This document shows positions 1 through 3,677 of a stretch of DNA of 5,078 nucleotides, in pieces. The DNA is taken from positions 1-5,078 of the forward strand of contig JAUSPT010000004.1 in the NCBI GenBank assembly GCA_030652805.1, written 5' to 3'. How positions within the stretch are numbered: position 1 is the first letter of the stretch; every line of letters begins with the position of its first letter. The position numbers and the translations under genes are program-made. Below the pieces are notes generated by a model. That model was not told the DNA's origin, did no database searches, and saw only the letters and a program-made list of their open reading frames with translations. The DNA is from a bacterium. GTDB taxonomy: Bacteria; JAHJDO01.

Positions 1-321
1 TTTTTTTTGCAACATCCATCTATATAGCGTGGTAAACCCCGCTTCAGCCGCTATTTCTTTTCTATTTTTATTGCGTGTGTCCATGTCTATTATTTTTTGC
101 GTATTAGCAGATGGAAACTGGTGTCCTTTCGGTAGCTTAGGCAACCTTTCTTCATCCATAGCTTTACCAATAGATGAAGCCGATATGTAAATTATGTCTT
201 GTATTGCAACCAGTGATTTATATTTCTTATAAAGCTGTTTTAAAAACATCCAGCGGGTTTTATAATTAGTTTTGTGATCTCGATTATAAGCAAGCCTTGT
301 TCCGTCCCAGTCTATAGTCAT
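1..321 (-). CDS. IDWD/LPKGH family small protein, copy A (C-terminus cut by window edge)
   Basis: An open frame of 107 codons starts at ATG 321 and is still open at base 1, so the C-terminus is missing. A good ribosome site (AAGGAG, about 8 bases upstream) precedes the start, and the stop of the 57-aa gene before it lies 3 bases away, so the two are probably translated together. The N-terminus begins MTIDWDGTRLAYNRD, followed by a basic/aromatic stretch (YKTRWMFLKQLY, residues 20-31), a helical segment ending near DEE (residue 58), the block LPKGHQFPS (63-71) and MDT (80-82). The last part (ERK-less KEIAAEAGF then YRWML, about 88-104) looks like a helix-turn-helix. About 22 of the first 31 residues match the copy at 603-1004, and the LPKGH block also matches the copy at 1663-1938. 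A DNA-binding role is inferred from these helices. I do not recognise a named family. Confidence 0.75.
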   Translation of the reverse strand, partial: MTIDWDGTRLAYNRDHKTNYKTRWMFLKQLYKKYKSLVAIQDIIYISASSIGKAMDEERLPKLPKGHQFPSANTQKIIDMDTRNKNRKEIAAEAGFTTLYRWMLQKK

Positions 322-498: not shown

Positions 499-542
499 GA
501 TTTAGCGTATTCCTTTCCTTTGTTGTTATAGATGTTGTTCAT
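495..542 (-). CDS. 15-aa mini-ORF, translationally coupled
   Basis: The frame reads MNNIYNNKGKEYAKS and stops at TGA. It is preceded by a strong ribosome site (AGGGAGAAG, about 7 bases before the ATG). Its ATG overlaps the stop of the 34-aa frame upstream (ATGA), and its TGA overlaps the ATG of the 57-aa gene (ATGA). This double overlap suggests ribosomes do pass through it. It may be a true micropeptide, a leader that couples translation, or the decayed start of a longer gene. No function can be read from 15 residues. Confidence 0.4.
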   Translation of the reverse strand: MNNIYNNKGKEYAKS

Positions 543-643
543 ATCCGCTTCTCCCTACGCTTAAGTTCCAACTTTAATCCGGTAGTCTGATTTGAGGGTG
601 ATTCATATGTATAAGGTATTTCGGGCTGTGTTCCAGTCTGCAT
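539..643 (-). CDS. 34-aa small ORF overlapping the TnpB-fusion gene
   Basis: A short frame starts at ATG 643, directly after an in-frame TGA, and ends at TGA 541-539. The N-terminal third overlaps, in another frame, the last 13 codons of the gene at 603-1004. The C-terminus is charged (TGLKLELKRREKRI) and its stop overlaps the start of the 15-codon ORF as ATGA, the same junction style as the next pair. A weak GGGA lies about 9 bases before the start. The charged, non-repetitive tail and the ATGA junction favour translation. Against it, the overlapping frame has its own TnpB-like signal, and the part after 603 might be only the remains of a mobile-element end. No family is recognised. Confidence 0.35.
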   Translation of the reverse strand: MQTGTQPEIPYTYESPSNQTTGLKLELKRREKRI

Positions 644-1004
644 TCATCACATTCCCAGTTGTGTTGTCACCTATAAATTCACCATCTGAGCTTACAATCA
701 GTTCTTTATAACCAATATCTATGGTCTTAGTGTCCATATTAAGCACCTTTTTTTGCGCCAGCGAAGGAAATCTATGTCCCTTAGGCAGTAGTTTTAGCTG
801 AAGCTTGCCTTTTGCTGCTCTTAGTTTGTTCTCGTCTCTTATTGCCCTTGCAAACGCCTTGTGGCTTATACATATTGCTTTTGACGCTCGATAAAGCGAT
901 GTATGTTTATTATATAGTTGCTTTAAGAGCATCCAACGGCTTTTATATTTTGTTCCGTTGTCTCTGTTATAAGCAATTCTGTTTGCGTCCCAGTCAATAC
1001 TCAT
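603..1004 (-). CDS. IDWD/LPKGH family protein copy B fused to an internally deleted TnpB fragment
   Basis: This is a 133-residue frame with a strong ribosome site (AAAGGAG) just before ATG 1004. It starts 8 bases after the methyltransferase stop, so the two are co-transcribed. Residues 1-31 (MSIDWDANRIAYNRD, then YKSRWMLLKQLY) match copy A, followed by a helical region, the LPKGHRFPS block (73-81) and MDT (90-92). From about residue 93 the second helix-turn-helix seen in the other copies is absent. In its place is TIDIGYKELIVSSDGEF and GDN (94-114), matching the RuvC-I region of the TnpB at 1958-3004 in 20 of 22 residues. It runs straight into GNVMNADWNTARNTL (117-131), which resembles the RuvC-III end of TnpB proteins. 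The RuvC-II glutamate and zinc finger are missing, so it cannot be an active nuclease. It may be a broken gene or a small expressed DNA-binding fusion. The fusion itself is clear in the sequence; any role is inference. Confidence 0.75.
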   Translation of the reverse strand: MSIDWDANRIAYNRDNGTKYKSRWMLLKQLYNKHTSLYRASKAICISHKAFARAIRDENKLRAAKGKLQLKLLPKGHRFPSLAQKKVLNMDTKTIDIGYKELIVSSDGEFIGDNTTGNVMNADWNTARNTLYI

Positions 1005-1663: not shown

Positions 1664-1938
1664 TAATTCCTCGGCTTTTTCCATTTCTTATTAAACCGTG
1701 TTAACAATAGCCAAGCGAACTGTGGCGTTATTTTAGCTTGCAGAGCTACCTGCCATCGGTACATATCAGCCGTGTCCATCTCCAGCACTGCTAATTGAGC
1801 CCATGAGGGGAATCTATGCCCTTTTGGTAGTCGTGGTATTCCTTCATCCACCATAGCCCTGTGAAACGATGTGTGTGCCATATAGAGGGCTTCACCGCAT
1901 TTCTGGCATGTCTTGTATTCTGCGTAAATAGCTGATAG
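1663..1938 (-). pseudogene. 3' part of IDWD/LPKGH family gene (copy C) cut by the IS607 element
   Basis: Coding similarity continues upstream of the first ATG (1881) to about 1938, where an in-frame TAA (1941-1939) blocks it. The 19 codons before that ATG read LSAIYAEYKTCQKCGEALY and line up without gaps with LKQLYNKHTSLYRASKAIC of copy B, so the true gene began further up. The rest carries FHRAMVDE, LPKGHRFPS, MDT and a likely C-terminal helix-turn-helix (WQVALQAKITPQFAWLLL) with a basic tail ending KKPRN. The missing N-terminus lies at 3630-3677, across the transposon. A 72-residue product could still be made from ATG 1881, where a weak GGTGA lies upstream; this would keep the LPKGH block and the last helix-turn-helix. 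The CQKC pair is specific to this copy. Its stop overlaps the methyltransferase start (TAATG). Confidence 0.75.
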
Positions 1939-1943
1939 TTACC

Positions 1944-1957
1944 TTTTCTATAGAAAA
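1944..1957. repeat. Perfect 14-bp palindrome at the right end of the IS607 element
   Basis: TTTTCTATAGAAAA is fully self-complementary and lies between the tnpB stop and the inferred right boundary. Each half matches the TTTTCTAT core repeated at the left end, so it is probably a TnpA binding site. As RNA it could form a 5-bp stem with a UATA loop at the 3' end of the tnpB transcript. This is where the guide (omega) RNA of TnpB elements normally ends, so a structural role there is also possible. Confidence 0.55.
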
Positions 1958-3004
1958 TCATAGAACTGGCTGTAAGGCGTCGAGACCATATGCACCGACG
2001 AATAGGATATTTTTGGATGCATTGAGATCGCTATCCATCAATAATCCACAAGAGCACTTGTAAGTTTCGCCACGACGGTTTGACTTACAAATGCGCCCAC
2101 ATTGGCTACAACGCTGGCTGGTATATTGAGAAGGAACTTTTTTAAAAATAACTCCGGTTTCTTCACACAGCATAGATAATTTATCAAGGACACCTCGATA
2201 AGTCCATCTTTGTAGCTTATTATTGAATTTCTTACATATTTTGCCTTTAGTCTTATGTTTGACATTTTTTAAGTCTTCAGCAAACAGCTCTTTGACATTA
2301 TCTAAATCTAAAGCTTTACATGAGACATTGACCAATTCATTACGCTCGATCAAGGCACGTTTAAAAGCCTTACTGCCTTGCTTCTTGCGTGCTATTTTTT
2401 CATAAATTACATTATCCCCGATGAACTCACCATCAGAACTAACAATGAGCTTTTTATAACCGATATCAATGGCTTTCTGGCCACCAGAAGTCTTTATTGG
2501 AGGAGCTGGTTTTTCAAAGAAAATATCAACGAAATAACCATTTTCAGTTATTCTAAGCCGAATAGATTTTTTGATGATCCAGCCGGCTTCTATAAAGTGA
2601 TTAAAATGGAAGTGCTTTTGGGAAGGCAGGTTGATTGTGATTTTGTTGCCTATTGAGGATAATTTAATCCAAATATCAAAGCTATTTACAGCTTGTTTAA
2701 TATCAACAAAGCGTGAATCAAGCTCCATGACAACTCGATTAAGAACTGGCTTGGTTTTCTTTTTCTTCTTGCGCTGGGATTTAACAATAGATAGAGCTTG
2801 TTTTGCGGCAGCTTGTCTTAGCCTGGCCGATAACCAGCTTTCAACTGTAGTATCCTTGACAAAATTGCCAGAGAATTGCCTTTGCTCCCAAAGGCTGTCT
2901 ATAAACAGGTTGACAACGCTTTGATATTCCTCGGCTATCTCTTTGACCTTCTCAAGCTTGCCAGTATTCGCAAATTTAAGGCTTATTGTCGATTTTCTTA
3001 TCAT
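1958..3004 (-). CDS. tnpB: TnpB, RNA-guided RuvC endonuclease of the IS607 element
   Basis: TnpB proteins are compact ancestors of Cas12. They use a guide RNA made from the element's right end to cut matching DNA, which helps keep the element in place. This 348-residue protein is within the usual range. Visible parts are an N-terminal helical/beta region with a lysine run (79-83), RuvC-I at KAIDIGYKKLIVSSDG (catalytic D180), RuvC-II at LFAEDLKNVK (E243), the TSQRCSQCG zinc finger (C299, C302, C317, C319) and RuvC-III at MDSDLNASKNI (D324/D326). All catalytic positions are present, so it is likely active. It overlaps the end of tnpA by 29 bases, suggesting coupled translation; AAAGAG lies upstream of ATG 3004. 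The last residues after SKNILFVG are less typical and lie over the probable guide-RNA region. Cleavage activity and the guide are inference. Confidence 0.93.
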   Translation of the reverse strand: MIRKSTISLKFANTGKLEKVKEIAEEYQSVVNLFIDSLWEQRQFSGNFVKDTTVESWLSARLRQAAAKQALSIVKSQRKKKKKTKPVLNRVVMELDSRFVDIKQAVNSFDIWIKLSSIGNKITINLPSQKHFHFNHFIEAGWIIKKSIRLRITENGYFVDIFFEKPAPPIKTSGGQKAIDIGYKKLIVSSDGEFIGDNVIYEKIARKKQGSKAFKRALIERNELVNVSCKALDLDNVKELFAEDLKNVKHKTKGKICKKFNNKLQRWTYRGVLDKLSMLCEETGVIFKKVPSQYTSQRCSQCGRICKSNRRGETYKCSCGLLMDSDLNASKNILFVGAYGLDALQPVL

Positions 3005-3563
3005 CTTGAAGCTCTTTAATTAATTGTTCGGTTTTTCTTTTGCTTCGGCGTTGCCCATAAATTTTAGCACAAAAACTTGTAATAATTGAAACAAAGTCTT
3101 GAATTAAATCTTGTTTGTCTGTTTCAGTTTGATTTAAAATTATTATTTCACAATTAATATGAGAACATAATATTTCAAGGTATCTTACACCAAACCTTGA
3201 TAATCTATCTTTGTGCTCAACAACTATTTTTGTTGCCTTGCCATTAAGCAAGACAGATTCAAGTTTTTTCCGTTTATCGTTTAATCCTGAGCCTATCTCT
3301 TTTAGATTAAGGTCTGCAGTCCATCCTTTGGCATTGCAAAAACCAATTAATCTTTTAGATTGGCTTTCAAGATTATCTTTGTTTTGAGAGGAACTAACAC
3401 GGGCATAAGTAACAATAAAATCTTGTTTTTTTCCAATGGATTCAGGTATTATTATAGCCCCACCTGGTAACTTATAAGCCGAAGGGAGCTTTCCGGTTCT
3501 AAAATATTCCCATGCTGTTCTATAAGTAATGCCTTGTTTTTTAGCCCAGTGTGATAATTTCAT
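2976..3563 (-). CDS. tnpA: TnpA, IS607-type serine recombinase (transposase)
   Basis: This enzyme moves the element by serine-recombinase cut-and-rejoin chemistry through a circular intermediate. The 195-residue protein has the IS607 layout. First comes an N-terminal MerR-like helix-turn-helix for end binding (MKLSHWAKKQGITYRTAWEY, then PSAYKLPGGAIII). The catalytic domain follows, with YARVSSSQ (catalytic S57, supporting R55), GSGLN (91-95) and DRLSRFG (119-125, R120/R123). The family's C-terminal FCAKIYGQRRSKRK motif is at about 164-177. Having the DNA-binding domain in front of the catalytic domain is the reverse of most small serine recombinases and marks IS607. The start is the conserved MKLS. 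It sits only 6 bases after a consensus -10 box, so the message is probably leaderless. Nothing looks truncated. Confidence 0.93.
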   Translation of the reverse strand: MKLSHWAKKQGITYRTAWEYFRTGKLPSAYKLPGGAIIIPESIGKKQDFIVTYARVSSSQNKDNLESQSKRLIGFCNAKGWTADLNLKEIGSGLNDKRKKLESVLLNGKATKIVVEHKDRLSRFGVRYLEILCSHINCEIIILNQTETDKQDLIQDFVSIITSFCAKIYGQRRSKRKTEQLIKELQDDKKIDNKP

Positions 3564-3629: not shown

Positions 3630-3677
3630 TTATACTTTATTCCACATGTAGCGATTTAAATCCCAATCGATTGCCAT
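3630..3677 (-). pseudogene. 5' fragment of IDWD/LPKGH family gene (copy C) left of the IS607 element
   Basis: The frame reads MAIDWDLNRYMWNKV then stops at TAA. The first nine residues match the starts of copy A (MTIDWDGTR) and copy B (MSIDWDANR), which identifies it as the N-terminus of the same family. It begins one base after the stop of the 52-aa gene, as expected for a gene in the same operon. The IS607 boundary is placed at the GG in the TGG codon (W12), so the last few codons belong to the element. The remainder of the gene is at 1663-1938. About 11-14 codons present in the other copies are found on neither side. Confidence 0.75.

What the first reader, a model, noticed from the sequence alone, without database searches (positions are those of the whole stretch)
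603..1004. In-frame fusion of a phage small protein to a TnpB core lacking RuvC-II and the zinc finger
The N-terminal ~92 residues belong to the IDWD/LPKGH family. The rest joins a RuvC-I segment (20 of 22 residues equal to the nearby TnpB) directly to a RuvC-III-like NADWNTARNTL. The DNA of the RuvC-I piece differs from the intact tnpB at about 16 of 66 positions, mostly without changing the protein. It therefore came from a different, long-functional TnpB lineage and is not a copy of the neighbour. The TnpB piece takes the place of the family's second helix-turn-helix. It could be decay, or a domesticated nuclease-dead domain that binds DNA or a guide RNA.
Basis: partly seen in the sequence, partly recalled or inferred. 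Interest (0 to 1): 0.65.

Follow-up and report, generated by a model that had tools for sequence, protein, structure and literature searches.

The report
Transposon scrap fused to phage protein
A small phage gene for a DNA-binding-type protein has lost its normal tail and now ends in two short in-frame scraps of a dead TnpB transposon gene; the join is real in the sequence, but it looks like ordinary transposon decay and not a new RNA-guided protein.

Summary
ORF 603-1004(-) is 133 aa. Residues 1-92 belong to a phage two-helix-turn-helix family with two other copies on this contig and orthologues in IMG/VR. Residues 93-114 are a TnpB RuvC-I piece (20/22 identical to the neighbour; 16/66 nt differences, 14 synonymous). 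Residues 117-133 are a genuine TnpB RuvC-III piece: score 33.9, against 18.7 for the best of 187,119 random windows. It is a relic of a different TnpB copy, missing the N-terminal half, RuvC-II and the zinc finger.

A working function is not supported. The covarying 3' RNA scaffold of intact relatives scores 121 bits at the neighbour but 7.6 at the relic, aligning only to coding sequence. AlphaFold gives the fused tail pLDDT 35-47, against 72-81 for the normal second helix-turn-helix. No second genome with the junction was found. Several related viral tnpB copies are also broken, and the neighbouring IS607 element has disrupted a third family copy. Best reading: a decayed IS607-type TnpB insertion that replaced the tail of one paralogue. 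The protein may still be made as a one-HTH protein.

The parts
603..1004 (-). Chimeric ORF, 133 aa
   Evidence: unique to this contig among everything searched
729..1004 (-). N-terminal 92 residues: IDWD/LPKGH phage family (first helix-turn-helix plus LPKGHRFPS linker)
   Evidence: AlphaFold pLDDT 74-86 over residues 1-70; dN 0.40 with saturated dS against the paralogue
663..728 (-). TnpB RuvC-I relic, KTIDIGYKELIVSSDGEFIGDN
   Evidence: 20/22 aa, 50/66 nt to neighbour; up to 53/66 nt to L034; DNA similarity stops at both edges
606..656 (-). TnpB RuvC-III relic, GNVMNADWNTARNTLYI; stop at 603-605 where relatives have a Gly codon
   Evidence: family-profile score far above null; DNA match to L039 tnpB, 0/300 shuffles; L024/L037 read NILHIG or NILHMG at the same place
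539..602 (-). Sequence 3' of the relic: no structured RNA and no IS607 right end
   Evidence: z = +1.6 to +2.1, i.e. less stable than shuffles; RNA model R1 aligns only to the coding half
1..321 (-). Intact paralogue with both helix-turn-helix units, running off the contig (completed on contig C10, total 109 aa)
1666..1938 (-). 3' part of a third family copy (orthologue of the L027 gene), cut by the IS607 element
   Evidence: 69% identity to the L027 gene over 91 aa
3636..3677 (-). 5' part of that third copy (MAIDWDLNRYMWNK)
   Evidence: tblastx to L027 9752-9711
2976..3563 (-). IS607 serine recombinase TnpA, 195 aa
   Evidence: PF00239 9.7e-16, phrog_6620 8.4e-54
1958..3004 (-). Full-length TnpB, 348 aa
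   Evidence: PF07282 3.3e-16; 70-83% identical viral relatives
1938..2058 (-). 3' RNA scaffold of the intact element (omega-RNA-like), overlapping the tnpB 3' end
   Evidence: 30 pairs, 9 with compensatory changes in 5 sequences; 121.3 bits with R1 (it is one of the training sequences)

Best explanation
The ORF is a paralogue of a phage two-HTH protein whose C-terminal HTH was replaced by the debris of an IS607-type TnpB element. An element from a TnpB lineage other than the neighbour landed in, or recombined into, the gene after codon MDT. It then lost both ends, the N-terminal ~175 codons, the ~100 codons between RuvC-I and RuvC-III, and its 3' RNA. The two surviving pieces happen to be in the host frame, and the ORF stops at a codon that encodes Gly in relatives. 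If made, the protein can act only through its first HTH and LPKGH linker; the TnpB tail is an inert, probably unstructured extension. Shown: identity of all three pieces, missing parts, absence of the RNA scaffold, absence of other instances in what was searched. Inferred: order of events, inertness of the tail, expression.
For: Both TnpB pieces are real, but only ~39 of ~348 residues remain. RuvC-II, zinc finger, N-terminal half and 3' RNA scaffold are absent. The fused tail has pLDDT 35-47 against 72-81 for the normal C-terminal HTH with the same four sequences. Base rate: L034, L043 and L044 carry related tnpB copies interrupted by stops, and the IS607 element in this window has itself cut a third family copy, which lacks about 36 bp relative to L027. 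The RuvC-III piece departs from residues that are invariant or nearly so in the compared relatives (A to T, I to T, D to N, and G to stop).
Against: The RuvC-I piece is nearly perfect (dN 0.04-0.12 against a saturated or near-saturated dS), so most of its divergence accumulated under selection. With no close donor sampled, selection after the fusion cannot be ruled out by dN/dS. Two in-frame junctions are about 1 in 9 by chance, so mildly favourable to a kept protein. The RuvC-III differences could be normal in an unsampled donor lineage and not decay.
Confidence: 0.83

Rival explanations
1. Domestication: the TnpB pieces were recruited as a nuclease-dead nucleic-acid-binding tail and are kept by selection.
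For: Both junctions in frame, intact start and Shine-Dalgarno; RuvC-I piece almost unchanged at protein level.
Against: No other instance in IMG/VR, GTDB contigs, INPHARED or 58 other genomes; low predicted order; the parts of TnpB that contact guide RNA and target (N-terminal half, most of RuvC, zinc finger; established knowledge of TnpB structures) are missing.
Confidence: 0.05
2. The relic's 3' region still makes a guide RNA for the intact TnpB nearby (in trans).
For: RNA model R1 places a weak hit exactly at the relic, 565-667(-), 7.6 bits, E 0.61 over the window.
Against: Only the coding half (RuvC-III DNA) aligns; the two 3' hairpins and the right end are absent; the region folds worse than shuffles.
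Confidence: 0.03
3. Assembly chimera: the junctions do not exist in any real molecule.
For: Single contig in a MAG; no reads available; junction seen once.
Against: The contig shares an exact 81-base overlap with C10, suggesting k = 81, and the two junctions lie 66 bp apart, so single k-mers span both. No other copy of this DNA in the MAG could cause a misjoin. Both pieces differ from the neighbour's tnpB.
Confidence: 0.05
4. Only the RuvC-I piece is TnpB; NADWNTARNTL is a chance resemblance or belongs to another frame (NWECDECRLEHSPKYLIHMNHPQIRLPD, open in another frame of the same strand).
For: The alternative frame is open for 28 codons.
Against: Score beyond every one of 187,119 null windows and DNA-level match to L039; the alternative peptide has no relatives.
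Confidence: 0.02

Closest known systems
IS607-family TnpB (intact copy 1958-3004 and IMG/VR relatives L022, L034, L037)
   Same: RuvC-I segment and RuvC-III motif in the same order, homologous at DNA level
   Different: About 39 of ~348 residues; no RuvC-II, zinc finger, N-terminal half, 3' RNA scaffold or IS ends
TldR, TnpB-like nuclease-dead repressors (PMC13418256)
   Same: Phage-borne, TnpB-derived, without a working RuvC
   Different: TldRs are described as losing nuclease activity without apparent loss of guide RNA and DNA binding; here the protein core and RNA scaffold are gone
IDWD/LPKGH two-HTH phage family (unnamed; L027 9399-9752, L029 13688-14044)
   Same: N-terminal HTH and LPKGHRFPS linker
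   Different: Second HTH replaced by TnpB relic; extra 10-residue insert before LPKGH

Membership tests
TnpB nuclease | RuvC-I segment with catalytic Asp (xDxG) | tested here: met
   IDIG within a 22-aa segment, 20/22 identical
TnpB nuclease | RuvC-II with catalytic Glu | tested here: not met
   residue 114 (GDN) joins directly to the RuvC-III piece; the ~100 intervening residues of relatives (AEDLKN region) are missing
TnpB nuclease | RuvC-III motif (D/N)ADxNAAxNIL | tested here: met
   MNADWNTARNTL; score 33.9, null maximum 18.7
TnpB nuclease | Zinc finger and N-terminal half | tested here: not met
   absent; PF07282 does not match the piece
TldR / TnpB with guide RNA | 3' structured guide-RNA scaffold | tested here: not met
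   R1: 121.3 bits at intact copy (training sequence), 7.6 bits at relic, aligning in coding part only; fold z +1.6 to +2.1
TldR / TnpB with guide RNA | Conserved in several genomes with linked partner gene | tested here: not met
   no second instance found; metagenome contigs could not be scanned
IDWD/LPKGH phage family | IDWDxNR, first HTH, LPKGHRFPS | tested here: met
   modelled helices 23-33, 37-43, 48-65
IDWD/LPKGH phage family | Second C-terminal HTH | tested here: not met
   present in paralogue (pLDDT 72-81), absent here (pLDDT 35-47)
Chimeric protein kept by selection | dN/dS below 1 across the fused part after fusion | not testable with these tools
   no second copy of the fusion exists in the data searched

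The most novel reading that the evidence does not exclude
A phage two-HTH DNA-binding protein has exchanged its C-terminal HTH for a miniature TnpB-derived tail that is kept by selection, for example to interact with TnpB, its guide RNA or IS607 DNA ends of the element inserted nearby.
Probability: 0.04. Interest if true: 0.7.

Novelty: new member of a known kind. Interest (0 to 1): 0.2.

Why it matters
As it stands it is a clean example of how IS607/TnpB insertions truncate and re-tail phage genes, with the relic's donor lineage different from the element now next to it, implying at least two separate visits by related elements to the same small phage region. It also cautions against reading short TnpB-like tails as domesticated RNA-guided proteins: the RNA scaffold must be checked too.

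Tried and rejected
Searches for a second fusion: IMG/VR, GTDB contigs, INPHARED, 58 other genomes including the genus: none. Rfam on the window: nothing. Pfam, PHROGs and NCBIfam on the tail: nothing significant. Alternative reading frame of the RuvC-III stretch: no relatives. tblastn of the RuvC-III piece alone in phages and plasmids: no hit, query too short. Search for the donor TnpB in 395 genomes of one host phylum: only the genome already known. PDB fold search with the paralogue model: best-ranked hits are mostly HTH repressors but none significant (best E 2.3). The other TnpB of this MAG (C48) has a different RuvC-I (SLDPGIRSF) and is not the donor.

Full report
What the window is. The window is the whole of contig C4 (5078 bp) of a 2.0-Mb MAG from a phylum with only five held genomes. 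It is phage DNA. Its RusA-like gene is 79% identical to one in IMG/VR contig L027 and a gene of the family in question is 69% identical. Contig C10 overlaps its left end by exactly 81 bases and carries a DnaB-like helicase whose best tblastx segment against L027 is 89% identical.

The N-terminal family. Three copies lie on this contig: 1-321(-), the reported ORF, and a third split by an IS607 element (3636-3677 and 1666-1938, minus strand). Orthologues occur in L027 and L029; none was found in the phage or plasmid records. The model of the 1-321 paralogue shows two three-helix units joined by the LPKGH linker (helices 23-34, 37-44, 48-56 and 72-79, 87-94, 98-106), consistent with a two-HTH DNA-binding protein. 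No database family matches significantly (weak HTH_50 and TyrR-HTH hits, E about 0.1), and no solved structure matches significantly.

The TnpB pieces. Residues 93-114 match TnpB RuvC-I: 20/22 aa and 50/66 nt against the neighbour, 53/66 nt against L034; similarity ends sharply at both edges. Counted by Nei-Gojobori, 14 of 16 differences to the neighbour are synonymous, so the divergence accumulated in a protein under selection. Residues 117-133 match RuvC-III far beyond chance at protein level and in one ungapped 51-bp DNA stretch to L039 (0/300 shuffles), with no DNA match above chance to the neighbour. So the relic comes from a TnpB copy other than the one now next door. Whether both pieces come from one donor is open: no TnpB with both segments was found.

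What is missing. About 175 N-terminal codons, about 100 codons between the two pieces (RuvC-II, zinc finger), the last codons, the right end, and the RNA. Intact relatives share a covarying RNA structure over the tnpB 3' end (30 pairs, 9 with compensatory changes), a likely omega-RNA scaffold. A model of it scores 121.3 bits at 1938-2058(-) (a training sequence) and 7.6 bits at 565-667(-). That weak hit aligns only with the RuvC-III coding half; the 3' hairpins do not align. The relic's 3' region folds less stably than its shuffles (z +1.6 and +2.1), while L034 and L022 give z -2.3 and -2.9 (the neighbour gives -0.85).

Does the fused tail do anything? With four sequences in the alignment, AlphaFold gives residues 1-70 pLDDT 74-86 and the fused tail 35-47; in the paralogue the normal C-terminal HTH reaches 72-81 under the same conditions. 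Shallow alignments limit both, and the paralogue model is itself poor at its N-terminus. The N-terminal part shows clear purifying selection between paralogues (dN 0.40, dS saturated), as does the TnpB lineage before fusion. Selection on the tail after fusion cannot be measured because no second copy was found.

Decay is common here. Three of the viral relatives' tnpB copies (L034, L043, L044) are interrupted by stops, and the IS607 element in this window cut a family gene that lacks about 36 bp relative to L027.

Verdict. A real chimeric ORF, best explained as a phage gene re-tailed by the debris of an IS607-type TnpB element. It may still act as a one-HTH protein. It fails the tests for TnpB (no RuvC-II, no zinc finger) and for TldR-like RNA-guided repressors (no RNA scaffold, no conservation; TldR description from PMC13418256). 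Assembly error is unlikely but was not tested with reads.

Noticed in passing
window 1938-2058(-); L022, L024, L034, L037: The 3' end of the intact IS607 tnpB and its relatives carries a covarying RNA structure (9 of 30 pairs with compensatory changes), probably the omega-RNA scaffold; Rfam has no match.
   Followed up: partly
window 1-81 and G000:C10 1-81 (L050): Exact 81-base overlap joins contigs C4 and C10 and completes the 1-321 gene. The graph break may be due to the poly-A run (8 A at the C4 end, 9 A in C10), or to another sequence joined at the same MDT codon where the fusion junction lies.
   Followed up: partly
window 1666-1938 and 3636-3677: IS607 insertion into a third family copy with about 36 bp of that gene missing compared with L027.
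   Followed up: partly
L034 3001-4044: The closest viral tnpB (83% aa) is cut by an in-frame TAA directly upstream of its RuvC-I segment.
   Followed up: no
L027 9265-9420 and 8342-9145: In L027 the start of the methyltransferase next to the family gene is duplicated/truncated (first 17 residues 82% like the window's enzyme), followed by a complete but divergent methyltransferase; the site looks like a hotspot of replacement.
   Followed up: no
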